From NCBI RefSeq assembly GCF_000170755.1, contig NZ_ABCK01000040.1:1-34227 (forward strand): a DNA stretch of 34,227 nucleotides, in the 5' to 3' direction. This document shows, in pieces, positions 7,380 to 22,788 of this stretch (position 1 is its first letter; each line of letters opens with the position of its first letter). Below the pieces are notes generated by a model that was not told the origin of the DNA, searched no databases, and was given only the letters and a program-made list of their open reading frames with translations. Both the position numbers and the translations under genes were made by a program. The DNA comes from Lentisphaera araneosa HTCC2155 (GTDB taxonomy: Bacteria > Verrucomicrobiota > Lentisphaeria > Lentisphaerales > Lentisphaeraceae).

Positions 7380-7763
7380 ATGAAAGATACAATAAGATAT
7401 AGTGAATCATTTAAACAAAAAGTGGTAAACGAGATCTCCAAAGGTAAATTTATAAGCTGTGGAGAAGCGAGCCAAGCTTATGGGATATCAGGCTCTTGTA
7501 CAGTAAGAGCCTGGGTCAAAAAGTATGGTAGAACAGACTTATTACCAAAGGTGATTAAAGTGGAAACAGAAAATGATATTGATGAGATTAAAGCTCTTAA
7601 AAAGCATATTGCTGAGTTAGAGAAAACAGTAACCGAACTAGCGATAAGTGATGTTATGAATAAAGCTTACTTTGATATAGCTTGTGATGAGTTCGGCGTA
7701 TCTGATAAAGAAGCCTTCAAAAAAAAAGTCGGTGTGAAGCGGTCAAAAGAGTCAGATCAATGA
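7380..7763 (+). CDS. IS3-family transposase OrfA
   Basis: 127 residues: N-terminal helix-turn-helix of the transposase_8 type (RYSESFKQKVVNEI, then SQAYGISGSCTVRAWVKKYG) and a C-terminal leucine-zipper-like coiled coil (IKALKKHIAELEKTVTELAI). It ends in an ATGA overlap with orfB. A run of nine A followed by G at 7719-7728, near the 3' end, is the kind of slippery site used for the -1 programmed frameshift that makes the OrfAB transposase; the -1 frame is open from that run into orfB. OrfA itself looks intact. Confidence 0.88.
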   Translation: MKDTIRYSESFKQKVVNEISKGKFISCGEASQAYGISGSCTVRAWVKKYGRTDLLPKVIKVETENDIDEIKALKKHIAELEKTVTELAISDVMNKAYFDIACDEFGVSDKEAFKKKVGVKRSKESDQ

Positions 7764-8594
7764 ATAGCCACTTTACTGTTAAACAACTTTGTAATCACCT
7801 CCATATGAGTCGGCAAAATTTCTATAAAAATAAATCTTTAAGCACCAAAAAAGAAGTAGATAGAAAACTTGTGATCGATCTTATTAAAGAACAACGTTGC
7901 ATTCAATCTGAGCTCGGAATTCGAAAGCTGCAGAATATGTTAGTAGATAACTTCAAAGAGAATTCTATACAGATAGGACGAGATCGCTTATTCGATATAG
8001 CTCGCGAAGAACGCCTATTAATCAAAAGAAAGAGGAAGTACTGTCGAACTACTGACTCTAGGCATCGTTTTAAAGTCTACAAAATCTAATAAAGGATAAG
8101 GTGTTACCGCACCTAACCAGGTGTGGGTTTGTGATATAACATACATCAGAGTTGCAAAAAGCTTTGTTTATCTAGCGTTAATCACAGATGCCTTCTCTAG
8201 AAAAATTATTGCTTATAATGTGGGAGAGAGTTTAGAAGCTGTAGGATGTATCAAAGCATTAAAGATGGCTTTAAAAAGTCTCCCAAAAGGGTCATACCCC
8301 ATCCATCACTCTGACCGTGGGTCTCAGTACTGCTGTCACGATTACATTGAAATCTTGACGAATAGAAATCTTCCTGTCAGTATGACTGAAGAAAACCATT
8401 GCTATGAAAATTCAAAAGCTGAAAGAGTCAACGGAATACTGAAGTATGAATATCATTTACGCGAAACATTTAAGAACTTTAAAGATGCTAAAAAAGCAAT
8501 TAAGCAGGCTATTTACTTATACAATAATTGTCGCCCTCATACAGCTTTGGAATATTCATTTCCAAGTGTTGTTCATGAAACACAATGTGCATAA
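7760..8594 (+). pseudogene. IS3-family transposase OrfB, broken by a frameshift and a nonsense codon
   Basis: The first piece (7760-8089) holds the N-terminal HTH_21-type region ending TTDSRHRFKVYK; the second (from about 8100 to 8594) holds the rve catalytic core with D (VWVCDITYI), D (HHSDRGSQYC) and E (ENSKAERVNGILK). The pieces are in different frames. Adding one A to the AAAA at 8081-8084 restores KVYKNLIKG, after which a TAA at 8097-8099 stands where the family has Leu, followed by GVTAPNQVW. So at least two lesions separate the halves: a 1-base deletion and a nonsense change. The element is unlikely to transpose by itself. Confidence 0.85.
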
Positions 8595-8647
8595 ATATTA
8601 GTCAATTAACATAAACAAAAGTGACAACTATTTTTCAGGACTTGACA

Positions 8648-8990
8648 ATGGTACGCCAAGCACTAGCTTCCATGAGAAGGCATTTACAAGTTACGGTTTG
8701 CATTAAAGTTATATTTTTCTGAGAATTGAGAAAACCAGTTTTCAAATGCCATCAAATTGTCTTGCTTCCATTCGCATTCTTTTATGGACTGCCTAGTCCG
8801 ATGCATGATTGTATCCTATTTGATGCTGCAATCTTGGCAACGAACTTTCAACAAGGTCTGGCAAACCTATCATTCTGCTGGTGCTCCGCAGTCATCGCAT
8901 AAGACATTTGATAAACTCTTTTCTTTTTAAATTTCTTCCTTAATTGTGATTATAAGAAATATTGGGGAGGTTGGCTGGATTGGTGGATAA
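8648..8990. other. Gene-free stretch between two insertion sequences, possible relic
   Basis: 343 bp with no convincing gene. On the - strand (about 8690-8910) one frame reads CDDCGAPAE, two stops, then a CQDC pair 18 positions after the first, another stop, and a 38-codon run ending NANRNL. The paired CxxC spacing resembles a zinc ribbon, so this may be a decayed protein-coding gene, but I do not recognise the family. The part next to 8990 is the 3' flank of the IS110-type transposase and probably contains the end of that element; IS110 elements lack clear inverted ends, so I cannot place it. Confidence 0.3.
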
Positions 8991-10070
8991 TCATGATGCT
9001 TTTTTTAAAGCCTGTTTGTGGAGTGGTTCATAATTATCGCCACTGACCCAAAGTCGATGCATTAAAACAGCTAGCTTCCTAGCTATGGCTACTTTTGCTT
9101 TTTTTCTCCCCGCGCCACCACCTCGTGAGGCAATTCGATGTCCGTACCTCTTCAAATCAGAATCCGGGGATCTATCGCTAAAAATATGTTGAGCACAAAT
9201 AACCAGTAATGATCTCAAGTACCTATCTCCATGCTTTGTTATTCTTAGTTGTTTATCTTTTTCTCCCGATTGGTCCCGCTTTGGAGTTAGACCTAAAAAA
9301 GCACCTATATCACGACTCTTATTAAAACGGGTTGGATCATCAATAGTTAAAACAAATGCCAAGGCAGTAACTGGTCCCACTCCAGGAATCTGACGCAGGT
9401 GCTGAGCCTCGGGACAAGACTCTTCACTAATCAGTTCAATTCGATCATCCAACCTCTCTATTCGATCAGTCAGTTCTTGACATTCGTATAGCATCTCACC
9501 TAAAGTTGGCAATAAATCATCACATACATACTCATACATCTTTTCACTGAAACGATTAGCTTCGCACTTAGGGAGATCACTAACTCCTAAACTCTTTAGT
9601 ATACCCCTTAATGAATTCATCGTTTGGGTTCGCATCTTCACAAAATGCTCACGAGCACGCAACACTGTAAGCACTTGCTGAGAGTCCATACTTCGGTGTT
9701 GGATGCCGTACAAAAGTGATGGATCCATTCGGGCTACCCGTGCTATCTTTTCAGCGTCTTTTTCATCGCACTTATTCGTGCTGTCCCATATCATTCGAAG
9801 CTTACGAGCATTTGCTACAATTACATTGAAGCCCATACTTTTGAGTTTGCTCGATATCCATAAAGAGCTACTTCCTACTTCTAGAGCTACTCGGATTTTA
9901 TGAGGGCGTTCATAATTCGAAAAATATACACTTAACGATTCCAGATTATTTTCAATCTTTGCTTGTTCGACGATTTTACCTTCGGAATTTAATACACAAA
10001 TATCGTGTTTTTGATTTCCGAGGTCCATTCCAATTGTGATTTCAAGTACAGTGATAGTAATTTTAGACAT
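8991..10070 (-). CDS. IS110-family transposase (DEDD RuvC-like plus transposase_20)
   Basis: 359 residues, full length. The N-terminal DEDD/RuvC-like domain has D16 (GMDLGNQKHD), E64 (ALEVGSSS), and D102/D105 (CDEKDAEKIA). The C-terminal transposase_20 domain begins at the helix-hairpin-helix-like QIPGVGPVTALAF (~227), carries the catalytic serine candidate S268 (KRDQSGEKDKQLR) and ends with RKLAVLMHRLW. The frame is intact. IS110 enzymes are guided by a structured non-coding (bridge) RNA made from the element's own non-coding end. The 5' side here (10071 to about 10340) is long and rich in hairpins. This may be the only one of the first three IS copies that still has an intact enzyme. Confidence 0.93.
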   Translation of the reverse strand: MSKITITVLEITIGMDLGNQKHDICVLNSEGKIVEQAKIENNLESLSVYFSNYERPHKIRVALEVGSSSLWISSKLKSMGFNVIVANARKLRMIWDSTNKCDEKDAEKIARVARMDPSLLYGIQHRSMDSQQVLTVLRAREHFVKMRTQTMNSLRGILKSLGVSDLPKCEANRFSEKMYEYVCDDLLPTLGEMLYECQELTDRIERLDDRIELISEESCPEAQHLRQIPGVGPVTALAFVLTIDDPTRFNKSRDIGAFLGLTPKRDQSGEKDKQLRITKHGDRYLRSLLVICAQHIFSDRSPDSDLKRYGHRIASRGGGAGRKKAKVAIARKLAVLMHRLWVSGDNYEPLHKQALKKAS

Positions 10071-10345
10071 GGCAGTTCTCCGTTAATTTTGGTGGTAACT
10101 TAATTAATGTCAGGCAAGGTCTGCTAGCAAGTGGACTTTGCCAAGGGCTGCCTTCTCATACTATCTTGGCAATTTATTCCCCGCAAAATCAACTTAATCA
10201 CCGCAAAATATGCGGTGATTAAGTTGTTGAACAGGAGCACGAGTGAGACAGTTTCACTATCGTAGCGGCCACTGGAGCTACTGTCGTAGAGGCAAATAAA
10301 CTTTATATGATTTCCAGTATGCATTTGCTGCAGAAATGAATATCA
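10071..10345 (-). ncRNA. Hairpin-rich non-coding flank of the IS110 element: candidate bridge RNA
   Basis: About 270 bases upstream of the transposase start with no gene. Two strong stems are visible: an 8-bp perfect stem (TTGCCAAG at 10138-10145 with CTTGGCAA at 10165-10172, 19-nt loop), and a perfect 16-bp stem at 10190-10205/10211-10226 with a 5-nt loop. In IS110 proper, the bridge RNA is encoded in the non-coding end upstream of the transposase, in the same direction. Position and folding fit, but I have not identified the target- and donor-binding loops, and in the IS1111 branch the RNA would be on the other side. The right limit is arbitrary. Confidence 0.4.
10190..10226. repeat. Perfect 16-bp inverted repeat, 5-nt loop
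   Basis: The arms at 10190-10205 (CAACTTAATCACCGCA) and 10211-10226 are exact reverse complements, with AAATA between them. No T-run follows on either strand, so it does not look like an intrinsic terminator. Confidence 0.9.
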
Positions 10346-10352
10346 GATTTTT

Positions 10353-10626
10353 AGGTAAGCGCTGGAGCGAAGCTCCGAGTGTTGGGATTATCAAGGGTGC
10401 AAGTACCCTTGAGCGGGGTGTGGGGCGGAGGCCCATGTATAAATACCTCGGTTGGCCGAGGAGTCCTACTAAAAAATGTACACGATCACCCACAGGCATG
10501 GTGCTTCGCACACGAGATGTACGCTGTCCCTCTCGAGTTCTCCCTGCAAGATACTGCCGTATGGGCTAATAATTTTTGTCCGCCTGTCTGGCAAGACCCT
10601 TAACCAGGCGACTGGGGGCTTTGCCC
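10353..10626. other. GC-rich hairpin-dense element (structured RNA or palindromic repeat), split by the IS4 insertion
   Basis: A block clearly richer in G+C than its surroundings and made of successive stem-loops: GGAGC/GCTCC at 10364-10376; TCAAGGGT/ACCCTTGA at 10391-10412; CCTCGG/CCGAGG at 10446-10461; GTGC/GCAC at 10501-10511; a long bulged stem GTCCGCCTG/CAGGCGAC at 10578-10612; and the terminal palindrome GGGGCTTTGCCCC at 10615-10627. The palindrome is duplicated at 12039-12051 on the other side of the IS4-family element, so the native element continues there. Short frames exist on both strands but none resembles a protein. I do not recognise the RNA family; a multi-copy palindromic element or a non-coding RNA are both possible. 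Confidence 0.5.
10616..10626 (+). repeat. Target-site duplication of the IS4-family element, left copy
   Basis: GGGCTTTGCCC directly precedes the left inverted end (CATAAGCGCTAACC). The same 11 bases recur in the same orientation directly after the right end at 12040-12050. One further matching base on each side makes the exact boundary ambiguous by a base or two. The duplicated target is itself a palindrome of the form GGG-N5-CCC. Confidence 0.85.
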
Positions 10627-12039
10627 CATAAGCGCTAACCAGAAGCTTTTAAATCATTCTGTACTGTGTCTATTTGCAGTTTACGTGTACGTGGAGGTTC
10701 TTTGAGTGTTTCGCGAATTCTCATCCAATTCACCACAACCTTTCTTAGTGATATCGCTGGAAGTATAGTCTGTAAAACTATGGAATATAAAAACTCTCTT
10801 TCTCGCCATAATGATCTAGCACTGTTAGTTTTGGATAGTTTTTTTGATGGGGTATCCCCAGGGAAAAAAATCTTCGCCGCAGCGAATTATATACTCAATC
10901 AATGTTGCTACTAAAATCTTTCCTGCGAGCCAACTCCTCATTCCTATATCATTTTTTTTGTATAAGGGTGCCGCACCTATAATTGATTTTAAGCGCTTGA
11001 ATAGAAGCTCTATTTGCCATCGGCTACGATAAATATTAAGGATTTTTTCGGGTGATACAGACTCAGCCAATGTAGTTAAGATTAAAATATATCCTGCATA
11101 CTCTAAAGTTTCCGGTCTTGTGCTTCCTTTGCGACTGTTTTTACTGGCTTTCCGATGAATCGCTTTTTGAGCTTTTAAAGTACTTTCATGATCTTTTTTC
11201 ATAGCACAAACTCGAGCGTTTATTTGACCTTCATTGTGTTTTATAACAACGTTGTATTCACCGATATCTCCGAGTTTCAATTTCCGTAATTTCGACAAGA
11301 GTTTAAAAGGCGTACCATTGTCGTTATGTAAAGGGGTAAGGCTAGGAGGGAAGCGACAAAGAATATAGCCTCCATTGGAATGGACATGAATAATGCCATT
11401 TCTGCGTGGATAAACACGGTCTCCAATGAAAACGTCATTTGGTTTAACGGAATAATTCTTAAGTGATTCTCCTTTTTTTTGATCCGTTATAGTAATCTCG
11501 TCTGGTGCTAAGGTTTTTGCATTCATGGAGTAGTGAAGCATCCATGTGGATCCTGTTGCTCCTGGCTCCCTGACAATAGAGCCGTCAACATATCTGAAAT
11601 TATATTCTTCTTGCTCAGGAAGTCCCTGCGGGTTTTTCGGCTTCATTTTATCCAATAGTTGCGTAGTGCACCAGTTGAACCACTCACTTGATTTTTGTAA
11701 CCTTTTGAGTAATGCTACATCACTAACGTCAATAATATTGCCCTCTTTTGCCAAGGCGCATGTTGAGCGTAAAGAGAGGTTCCCACCCAAATGAATTAGT
11801 AATGTTCTTAGAAGCTTCGAAGGGCCATCTTCGCCTGAAAATTTTCGTCCGAACTTTAGCATTCCAGTTTCCGCCATCATACCATCCCAACCATCAGGAA
11901 GGAATGTTTTAAAATAATCCCAATCAGACCGAACTAAGCCATCTATATCCATATTAAGTACTAACCTTTATTTAATGAAAATAATATCATTTCAATATAA
12001 TTTAAGATTTGTAAATGTAAATTTTGATTAGCGCTTATG
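10627..12039 (-). mobile_element. IS4-family insertion sequence (IS231-like target choice)
   Basis: About 1.41 kb. The ends are inverted repeats: left CATAAGCGCTAACCAGAA; reverse complement of right CATAAGCGCTAATCAAAA (15 of the first 18 match, with the first 11 identical). It is flanked by an 11-bp direct repeat, GGGCTTTGCCC. IS231, an IS4-family element, is known to favour GGG-N5-CCC targets and to make duplications of about 10-12 bp, so the site fits. It is inserted in the last palindrome of the hairpin-dense element at 10353. It has one transposase gene on the - strand, with a frameshift. Confidence 0.88.
10635..11952 (-). pseudogene. IS4-family transposase, frameshifted near the C terminus
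   Basis: The main frame (11952 down to 10825, 375 residues) carries the DDE triad D123 (YVDGSIV), D178 (FIGDRVY) and E315, and the IS4-type Y-(2)-R-(3)-E-(6)-K signature at Y308, R311, E315 and K322. It stops early after GYPIKKTIQN. The next frame resumes PSKKLSKTNSARSLWRERE and continues through LPAISLRKVVVNWMR to a TAG at 10635-10637 lying in the left inverted end. Removing one T from the T7 run at 10839-10845 joins the frames to a protein of about 440 residues, normal for the family. It is either a disabling 1-base insertion, slippage at a homopolymer, or a sequencing error. The start ATG is at 11952. Confidence 0.85.
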
Positions 12040-21342: not shown

Positions 21343-22788
21343 ATGAACGATACTCTTTTTTCCGAATATTTCATCGGGGAACTACAACAAACGGCAGGAA
21401 TTTTAAGCGGTCCGCTGAAGATTGCGGGGGAAATCATACTTCTTCCTGAATTTGAAGGGATCCGAAAAGCGATTGAGAGTGATCAATTCCAGTTGAGTAT
21501 GGATAGGGCCGCTACTAAAAATCGCGAATTTAAAAATGGCAATACCAAAAAGCATCCACCAGCGGAATTAGTGGTTGCCTTGTTCATAGCCCGTCACTTT
21601 TATAATAATTGTTACGGGGAACGCGGCTATAGCATGTTATGTGAGAACAGTTCATTACATCAATTTATCGGGCGCCTAGGCATCGGGAAGTTCCCTTCAC
21701 GCAATACGATTCATGAACAGATTTCTGCACTTTCTGAACATACCCTTACACTTTTTCATCAAGCTATTTTGAACTGTGTCAAAGCATGTGACTTAGATGA
21801 TTTCTCAGCAGTAATCATTGATTCCACAGCCATCAAAGCCGATTCGTCCTGGCCGGTTGATAGTGCATTACTGAAGAACCTTAGTTGTAAAGTTATGAAA
21901 AATATTCAGAAAGTACATGATAAGCTCCCTTGCCTTGAACGTAGAGGAATCCCTCTCAAACGTCTACAGAATTACTGTGATGATATGAGTAAATTGGATT
22001 TTGTGATTTCGATGTTTAAAGGGAAGAAAGGAGCCAAGAAAATGAGGTATAAGTCTTATACACAAGAACTTTTGCCGAGGTGTCGAAAATTTATAACACG
22101 CCTGGAAAAGGTTCTACCTAAAATCAAACAGCACTGTAGCAGTATAAAGTCCTCGATGCTTGATGAAGATTTTTCTCGCTTTATTGATAAAGTTTTGATG
22201 GTTGAGCACCGCTTTAAGATGGCTCCTGAGGACTACGATGCCAAGACGGCAAGAAAAATTTACAGTATGAGTGATGACGACGCTGCCTTTATCAAAAAAG
22301 GCGGTCGTGAAACAGTTTTTGGTTATCGTCCAAACTTTGCTTTTAGTGCCAATGGTTTTCTGACTTCTTTCATTTTGGAATCTGGAAATACCAGTGACAG
22401 TAAAGTCTTTGCAGATTGCCTTGTGGAAAATAAAAAAATGACTGTAGAATCCGCTATGATGGTCAGTGTTGATGATGGATATAGCTCTGCAACGAATTTG
22501 GATTACGCCATAGAACAGGGAGTGGAATTAGTCAGTATCAGCGGTTCAAAGGGCAAGAAGCTTCTGGGAGAAGAAATTTATGAAAGTGAAAACTATCAGC
22601 TGGCGAGAAACATCCGCTCAATCTCTGAAGCGGGGATTTCAAAGATGAAGAACTATCACAATCTTGAGAGGTTTACCGTTTGTGGCTTAAAGAGAGTTCG
22701 ACAGGAAACGCTCATAAGCACTATAGGGTTCAACTTGGAGAGACTCTACCAGTTATTATCTCAAATCGAACTTCAAGTTGCTGCGTAG
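21343..22788 (+). CDS. DDE-type transposase (ISNCY/IS1182-like, family uncertain)
   Basis: 481 residues, intact. N-terminal region of the InsH-like type (HPPAELVVALFIARHFYNN, then FPSRNTIHEQISAL). Catalytic core: first acid in VIIDSTAIKADSS, second in VSVDDGYSSATN, and a C-terminal glutamate candidate in ISTIGFNLERLYQLL. Between these is the phrase ETVFGYRPNFAFSANGFLTSFIL followed by LESGNTSDSK, typical of DDE transposases with a beta-strand insert. ATG after AGGCGG. The frame is uninterrupted, and the element's inverted ends and target duplication are crisp, so the insertion looks recent. Confidence 0.85.
   Translation: MNDTLFSEYFIGELQQTAGILSGPLKIAGEIILLPEFEGIRKAIESDQFQLSMDRAATKNREFKNGNTKKHPPAELVVALFIARHFYNNCYGERGYSMLCENSSLHQFIGRLGIGKFPSRNTIHEQISALSEHTLTLFHQAILNCVKACDLDDFSAVIIDSTAIKADSSWPVDSALLKNLSCKVMKNIQKVHDKLPCLERRGIPLKRLQNYCDDMSKLDFVISMFKGKKGAKKMRYKSYTQELLPRCRKFITRLEKVLPKIKQHCSSIKSSMLDEDFSRFIDKVLMVEHRFKMAPEDYDAKTARKIYSMSDDDAAFIKKGGRETVFGYRPNFAFSANGFLTSFILESGNTSDSKVFADCLVENKKMTVESAMMVSVDDGYSSATNLDYAIEQGVELVSISGSKGKKLLGEEIYESENYQLARNIRSISEAGISKMKNYHNLERFTVCGLKRVRQETLISTIGFNLERLYQLLSQIELQVAA

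What the first reader, a model, noticed from the sequence alone, without database searches (positions are those of the whole stretch)
10071..10345. Candidate bridge RNA in the IS110 flank
The 270-bp leader of an intact IS110 transposase has no gene and at least two strong stems (10138-10172, 10190-10226). IS110 elements carry a guide RNA in the corresponding end that specifies target and donor DNA. An intact enzyme plus a structured leader makes this a plausible active RNA-guided recombinase.
Basis: partly seen in the sequence, partly recalled or inferred. Interest (0 to 1): 0.5.

Follow-up and report, generated by a model that had tools for sequence, protein, structure and literature searches.

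The report
RNA-guided jumping gene, guide misplaced

Summary
The leader 10071-10345 is not the bridge RNA. (1) Five copies at 98-99% aa in Lentisphaera marina and the relatives in the same genome end near 10166, so only 96 bp of the 275-bp "leader" belong to the element. Stem 10138-10172 straddles the element/target border and stem 10190-10226 lies outside it. (2) A covariance model of the 3' non-coding region matches only 8773-8905 (- strand) in the window. The element (8669-10166, 1498 bp) is an IS1111-group member: sub-terminal inverted repeats with 7/3-bp extensions, DEDD and GL-P----SG motifs, and a 322-bp 3' NCR. That NCR encodes a predicted seekRNA/bridge RNA whose two guides, in IS1111 order, match the flanking target. 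The target is a REP-like palindrome, GCCA^AGCnnnnGCTTGGC, with 56 intact copies in the genome. Relatives in the same genome (70% aa) carry different guides that match their own, different flanks: natural retargeting. Across 15 element types no permutation of 100,000 reaches the own guide-flank score. This is a new member of a known kind. The most novel open reading is that the true 96-bp leader encodes an antisense (RNA-OUT-like) hairpin; it is unproven.

The parts
8669..10166 (-). IS1111-group insertion sequence, 1498 bp (ends set by the IS1111 7-bp/3-bp extension rule; 2-3 bases of 'AG/AAG' are ambiguous with the target)
   Evidence: 6 of 6 near-identical copies share these ends and diverge outside except for the target motif; length
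8991..10070 (-). DEDD transposase/recombinase, 359 aa; D16, E64, D102, D105 and GLTPKRDQSG (S268) by inspection
   Evidence: C-terminal match (residues 203-347) to the solved ISCro4 and IS621 transposases, E 3.7e-9 and 1.5e-8
10149..10166 (-). left end: 7-bp extension AGATAGT (10160-10166) + sub-terminal inverted repeat ATGAGAAGGCA (10149-10159)
8669..8682 (-). right end: sub-terminal inverted repeat TGCCTTCTCAT (8672-8682) + 3-bp extension GGA
8669..8990 (-). 3' non-coding region, 322 bp, source of the predicted guide RNA
8773..8905 (-). seekRNA/bridge RNA region: covariance model match, 139 bits (the window is one of the 8 sequences the model was built from)
8821..8896 (-). predicted 76-nt seekRNA core closed by GATGaCTGC/GCAGCATC
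8877..8885 (-). top-strand (right-side) target guide AGCACCAGC, complementary to GCTGGTGCT of the target; 8 of 9 at the window's own right flank, 9 of 9 at L058
8833..8840 (-). bottom-strand (left-side) target guide TTGCCAAG, 8 of 8 with the left flank
8798..8816 (-). possible donor-binding segment (weak evidence)
10167..10172 (-). left half of the interrupted target (TTGCCA)
8650..8668 (-). right half of the interrupted target (AGCTAGTGCTTGGCGTACC)
   Evidence: intact sites
8684..8689 (-). possible -35 (TTGTAA) of a circle-junction promoter whose -10 would lie in the left end (GATAGT or TAGTAT, 10158-10165); weak match, 8 of 12
10071..10153 (+). hairpin in the true leader, stable mainly on the strand antisense to tnp (possible antisense regulator); not a guide RNA
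10190..10226 (.).

Best explanation
An intact IS1111-group insertion sequence sits in a REP-like palindrome. Inferred cycle, from the studied IS1111 elements: the ends join into a circle, and a promoter across the right-end/left-end junction transcribes tnp and the 3' NCR. The NCR yields a ~76-nt seekRNA (within a longer ~130-nt structured RNA) that binds the DEDD recombinase. [quoted passage not shown] Insertion is between GCCA and AGC in one orientation without target duplication. Shown here: the ends, the RNA structure by covariation, guide-target matching, natural retargeting, and intact target sites. Inferred: transcription, processing, protein binding, circle formation and activity.
For: Ends: 6 of 6 near-identical copies share them. 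sTIR and 7/3 extensions. R1 model: 24 hits at E<=0.01 in 36 sources, all on the tnp strand downstream of tnp (strands and positions), 12 of them in relatives not used to build it. Covariation: 25 of 30 pairs with two-sided changes, 94.3% of cells paired versus 31-42% for slid controls (alignment fitted to the model). De novo fold of a MAFFT alignment of 15 sequences: 15 pairs, 9 with two-sided changes (stretches chosen from R1 hits). Guides: 10 of 10 Lentisphaera copies scored match their own guide type better than the other two types on both sides (the guide letters were chosen after seeing the flanks). Blind scan of the whole NCR, 15 element types: mean own score 14.4 versus 10.8 swapped, 0 of 100,000 permutations reach own; also 0 without the L087 artefact. 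Target: 56 intact GCCAAGCn3-6GCTTGGC sites in the genome, reversed control 0; 23 intact TGCCAAGCNNNTGCTTGGCG sites, control 0.
Against: No transcript, protein-RNA or transposition data. The NCR is not more stable than shuffles (whole NCR z +1.0, core z -1.0); support rests on covariation. No Rfam match at gathering score. The window copy has one T-guide mismatch to its own flank. In the blind scan the right-side guide carries most of the signal: the left side alone beats every swapped NCR in only 3 of 15 types, the right side in 9 of 15, the sum in 13 of 15 (not L085, L090), and 12 of 15 when L097 replaces L087, whose right flank repeats its own NCR. The donor-guide signal is weak. The junction promoter is poor in this copy. 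12 of 36 sources gave no R1 hit at E<=0.01: L027 and L028 lack the region and L036 is cut by the contig end, but L084-L087 have a long 3' NCR.
Confidence: 0.95

Rival explanations
1. The leader 10071-10345 encodes an IS110-type (5') bridge RNA.
For: Gene-free and more structured than shuffles on the tnp-sense strand (z -3.6). The antisense leader contains one TTGCCAAG arm like the left flank.
Against: The element ends at 10166 in 6 of 6 near-identical copies. The structure comes from outside DNA and a border-spanning stem. There is no second guide: antisense T 5, sense B 5 and T 6 against the window's own flanks. The arm carries a substitution in the five L. marina copies and in the own-genome relatives (CTCGGCAA). 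The R1 model has no hit there. Relatives L081, L085, L087 and L090 have leaders of only about 40-60 bp.
Confidence: 0.02
2. The 96-bp in-element leader acts as a regulator of tnp: an inverted repeat that hides the ribosome-binding site in read-through mRNA, or an antisense hairpin RNA over the tnp start.
For: Of 24 leaders folded, by eye 23 pair a 5' arm with the sequence just before the tnp start, and in 19 that arm begins at the inner edge of the sTIR. In 9 of 9 Lentisphaera leaders (6 distinct sequences) the antisense strand is much more stable (z -4.4 to -6.3) than the sense strand (z -0.3 to -2.4). RNAalifold on the antisense strand finds 31 pairs; of 6 that vary, 4 are kept in every row, mostly through G-U. 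The sense strand gives 22 pairs.
Against: Only one pair with a two-sided change and two pairs with broken cells. Among the 15 relatives' leaders there is no consistent strand bias: L080 favours antisense (z -7.1 versus -3.3), L085 and L088 favour sense, most are similar. Promoter-like sites are not above chance (6 found, 4.8 expected); the one + strand site inside tnp (9477-9506) lies about 560 bp before the hairpin.
Confidence: 0.35
3. A dead relic: guide and ends are remnants, no longer mobile.
For: A single copy of this subtype was found in the genome. No activity data.
Against: Open frame with motifs intact, ends and guides intact, and five copies at 98-99% aa in L. marina, four with the same 1495-bp layout and one with an insert.
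Confidence: 0.2

Closest known systems
IS1111-family insertion sequences with seekRNA (ISEc11, ISKpn4, ISPst6, ISPa11; Siddiquee et al. 2024, PMC11187229: abstract, introduction, results and discussion read)
   Same: sTIR of 11 bp with 7/3-bp extensions, 3' NCR, seekRNA of 70-100 nt with the top-strand guide before the bottom-strand guide, GL-P----S(T)G motif, no target duplication. ISPa11 also targets REP palindromes. Natural redirection between ~70% identical relatives was also reported (ISEc11/ISXne4).
   Different: Host is Lentisphaera; the target is a different palindrome; tnp is 359 aa (330-350 aa given as the family spread); three guide specificities were seen in one genome.
IS110-group bridge RNA systems (IS621; Durrant et al. 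2024, PMC11208160: passages read)
   Same: DEDD recombinase with serine motif; bispecific target guides; a two-base core (CT in IS621, AG/CT here).
   Different: The IS110 group mostly encodes the RNA in a long 5' (left) end and has very short repeats; here the right end is long (322 bp) and the left short (96 bp).
IS10 RNA-OUT antisense control and read-through hairpins of insertion sequences (recalled, no call)
   Same: A hairpin over the transposase start region, here more stable on the antisense strand.
   Different: No transcript or promoter evidence here.

Membership tests
IS1111 group | sub-terminal inverted repeats, usually 11-13 bp | tested here: met
   ATGAGAAGGCA / TGCCTTCTCAT, 11 bp, perfect
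IS1111 group | terminal extensions of 7 bp (left) and 3 bp (right) | tested here: met
   With AGATAGT and GGA as extensions, the flanks rebuild an intact genomic palindrome. Consistent but not unique: the cut point is ambiguous by 2-3 bases (AG/AAG).
IS1111 group | longer non-coding region downstream of tnp | tested here: met
   322 bp 3' versus 96 bp 5'
IS1111 group | DEDD residues and GL-P----S(T)G motif | tested here: met
   Pfam hits; D16, E64, D102, D105 and GLTPKRDQSG by inspection
IS1111 group | seekRNA with top-strand guide 5' of bottom-strand guide | tested here: met
   AGCACCAGC (8877-8885) precedes TTGCCAAG (8833-8840) on the - strand; swap test. The RNA itself is predicted, not observed.
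IS1111 group | RNA co-purifies with and is needed by the transposase; circular intermediate | not testable with these tools
   bench experiment needed
IS110 group (5' bridge RNA) | bridge RNA in a long left end upstream of the recombinase gene | tested here: not met
   left end only 96 bp, no R1 hit, no guide pair
IS110 group (5' bridge RNA) | no or very short sub-terminal repeats | tested here: not met
   11-bp perfect sTIR
REP-like palindromic repeats (target) | many dispersed palindromes with conserved stem and variable loop | tested here: met
   56 sites in own genome, 41 in G001, 2 in L. marina (G002), reversed control 0
REP-like palindromic repeats (target) | location between genes | not tested
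   not checked

The most novel reading that the evidence does not exclude
The genuine 96-bp leader encodes an antisense hairpin RNA, analogous to IS10 RNA-OUT, that pairs with the tnp start region and limits the RNA-guided recombinase. IS1111-group elements of this genus would then carry a second, regulatory RNA at the opposite end from the guide.
Probability: 0.15. Interest if true: 0.5.

Novelty: new member of a known kind. Interest (0 to 1): 0.27.

Why it matters
It settles where the guide RNA is and which IS group this is. It also extends covariation-supported, guide-matched seekRNA predictions to Lentisphaera and to relatives in the same phylum. Three guide specificities in one genome, each tracking its own target, are a natural demonstration of retargeting. 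In L. marina no intact exact target site was found while four of its five copies occupy one, which suggests target saturation (or loss of the repeat) and would be easy to test. The mechanism itself is published.

Tried and rejected
Rfam search: nothing at gathering score, and only four weak matches when relaxed, the best at E 0.19 over the outside palindrome. Thermodynamic z-scores: misleading, because they favour the outside DNA and not the NCR. Donor-binding loop: own-extension match mean 4.1 versus 3.5 for others, 179 of 100,000 permutations reach own; for this window only ACAATC against ACTATC, with one of nine other segments scoring higher and two equal. Treated as unproven. Junction promoter: TTGTAA-16-GATAGT, 8 of 12, weak here; TTGACA occurs in L079, L080, L082, L091 and L092. 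Type-2 target TAACTCAGCCTATGG with up to 2 mismatches hardly exceeds its reversed control (26 versus 17 in own genome, 12 versus 9 in G001, 12 versus 11 in G002; one exact site each in own genome and G002). Type-3 target ATACCTAAAGGCATG with up to 1 mismatch is enriched (15 in own genome, 1 in G001 and 7 in G002, versus 0 in each control). Plasmid records: at least 5000 hold a relative, all below 60% identity (listing only, not followed). Rows dropped in the swap test: nine loci without both ends found (L031, L036, L078, L089, L093-L096, L099), L084 (right flank cut by the contig end after 2 bases), and repeat copies of one type; the first listed copy stood for each type. In checking I found that L087's right flank repeats its own NCR, which inflates its score; the result holds with L097 in its place or with L087 dropped. 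Copies not scored: L062 (insert), L027/L029 (two pieces of one interrupted copy) and L028 (cut by the contig end); guides and flanks of L062 are. Three matches with E above 0.01 (two in L095, one in L024) entered alignment A2 and were dropped for A3. Structure prediction and viral-contig scans were not run, as they would not change the answer.

Full report
Observation. The transposase at 8991-10070 (- strand) is intact: 359 aa, with Pfam DEDD_Tnp_IS110 and Transposase_20. Motifs D16, E64, D102, D105 and GLTPKRDQSG were read by inspection. But the in-element part alone has z -0.25 on that strand and the outside part z -4.6.

Ends of the element. In its own genome (6.02 Mb, 81 contigs) the element has five full-length relatives at 70-71% aa (one with two stops) and two incomplete ones, one of them in two pieces. 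The DNA match to the full-length relatives covers only about 10167 to 8666. Lentisphaera marina carries five copies at 98-99% aa; the other same-genus genome, G001, has none. In 6 of 6 near-identical copies, the window included, the left end begins at AGATAGTATGAGAAGGCA and the right end stops at TGCCTTCTCATGGA, with unrelated DNA outside except the target motif. This gives an element at 8669-10166, 1498 bp, with a 96-bp leader and a 322-bp 3' NCR. The stem at 10138-10172 therefore joins element DNA to target flank. The palindrome at 10190-10226 is outside and has no other copy in the genome at E<=0.001 beyond its self-match.

Guide RNA. The 3' NCR contains GATGACTGCGG-AGCACCAGC-...-AGTTCG-TTGCCAAGAT-TGCAGCATC. 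A model (R1) of 8 Lentisphaera sequences gave 24 hits at E<=0.01 in 36 sources. These are 12 Lentisphaera copies (8 of them in the model) and 12 relatives not in it; by the strands and coordinates they lie on the tnp strand downstream of tnp. The 12 sources without such a hit are L027, L028, L036, L084-L087, L093-L096 and L099. On the fitted alignment (17 distinct rows) 25 of 30 pairs show two-sided changes and 94.3% of cells pair, against 31-42% when slid. A MAFFT alignment of 15 of these stretches, aligned without the model, gives 15 pairs by RNAalifold, 9 with two-sided changes. Stability alone would not have found it: whole NCR z +1.0 and core z -1.0.

Guides match targets. For the window type, AGCACCAGC is complementary to GCTGGTGCT on the right, and TTGCCAAG equals the left flank. 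Two other guide types occur in the same genome, each matching its own flanks. Of 10 copies scored, 10 match their own guide type best on both sides; there the guide letters were picked after seeing the flanks. The blind test scans the whole NCR: across 15 element types from the phylum the mean own score is 14.4 against 10.8 when swapped and 0 of 100,000 permutations reach it. The right side carries more of the signal (own 7.73 versus 5.30, 0 of 100,000) than the left (6.67 versus 5.51, 2 of 100,000). 13 of 15 types beat every swapped NCR on the sum. L087's right flank repeats its own NCR; with L097 instead, 12 of 15 types do, and still 0 of 100,000 permutations reach the own score. The window copy itself pairs 8 of 8 on the left and 8 of 9 on the right. 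In the leader, the sense strand scores B 5 and T 6 against the window's flanks and the antisense strand B 8 and T 5, compared with B 8 and T 7 in the NCR.

Target. Rejoined flanks of the window copy give TTGCCA^AGCTAGTGCTTGGCGTACC (L. marina L058 and L062: AGCTGGTGCTTGGCGTACCC), a palindrome with stem GCCAAGC/GCTTGGC. The genome has 56 sites GCCAAGCn3-6GCTTGGC, G001 41 and L. marina 2, with 0 in the reversed control. The stricter TGCCAAGCNNNTGCTTGGCG has 23, 23 and 0 sites. Four of five L. marina copies occupy such a site. Target saturation or loss of the repeat are both possible.

Mechanism. The features equal those published for IS1111 elements (PMC11187229: abstract, introduction, results and discussion read): sTIR, 7/3 extensions, 3' NCR, top-strand guide first, no target duplication. 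That paper also reports REP targeting by ISPa11 and natural redirection between ~70% identical elements. PMC11208160 (passages read) places most bridge RNAs in the right end of IS1111 elements and the left end of IS110 elements. Expression from the circle junction, processing and activity are inferred. The junction promoter is weak here (8 of 12) and the donor guide is unproven.

The true leader. 24 leaders were folded with 12 nt of coding sequence (two more loci, L093 and L096, had no recognisable left end). By eye, 23 of 24 pair a 5' arm with the sequence just before the start codon, and in 19 that arm begins at the inner edge of the sTIR. In 9 of 9 Lentisphaera leaders (6 distinct sequences) the antisense strand is far more stable (z -4.4 to -6.3) than the sense strand (z -0.3 to -2.4). 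The antisense consensus has 31 pairs, one with a two-sided change and two with broken cells, against 22 on the sense strand. The 15 leaders from other genera show no consistent strand bias: L080 favours antisense, L085 and L088 sense. An RNA-OUT-like antisense regulator is possible but has no promoter support (6 promoter-like sites, 4.8 expected).

Verdict. The finding points at the wrong end; the predicted guide RNA lies at 8773-8905 and is strongly supported. It is a new member of the IS1111 seekRNA kind. In five literature searches no listed title concerned this Lentisphaera element; apart from the two papers named I saw only the listings.

Noticed in passing
10071-10166 (+ strand): The true leader folds strongly mainly on the strand antisense to tnp (z -5.8 versus -0.25 sense; -4.4 versus -0.7 with 12 nt of tnp added); possible antisense regulator.
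   Followed up: partly
L029:1207-1425: An interrupted copy of the relative has a 32-nt tandem duplication of the seekRNA 5' part, including the top-strand guide.
   Followed up: no
L062 (L. marina copy): Carries about 1.1 kb of extra DNA inside the element downstream of the seekRNA (2617 versus 1495 bp between the same marks).
   Followed up: no
L087, just after the right end: The right flank repeats part of the element's own 3' NCR, as if the right end were duplicated.
   Followed up: partly
10466-10628: A dispersed repeat with at least 25 partial copies at 76-95% in this genome (40 of 82 candidates scored); a near match to the type-3 target (C2:206068-206082) overlaps one copy.
   Followed up: partly
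7380-8648: IS3-like element (named by inspection; only the integrase-core ORF 8121-8594 was scanned) whose end is repeated in the genome and stops about 20 bp from the IS1111 right end, beside the target half-palindrome.
   Followed up: no
G002 (L. marina) whole genome: No intact exact target site found while four of five element copies sit in one; own genome and G001 have 23 each.
   Followed up: partly
10825-11952 and 21343-22788: Further DDE transposases; the window is rich in insertion sequences.
   Followed up: no
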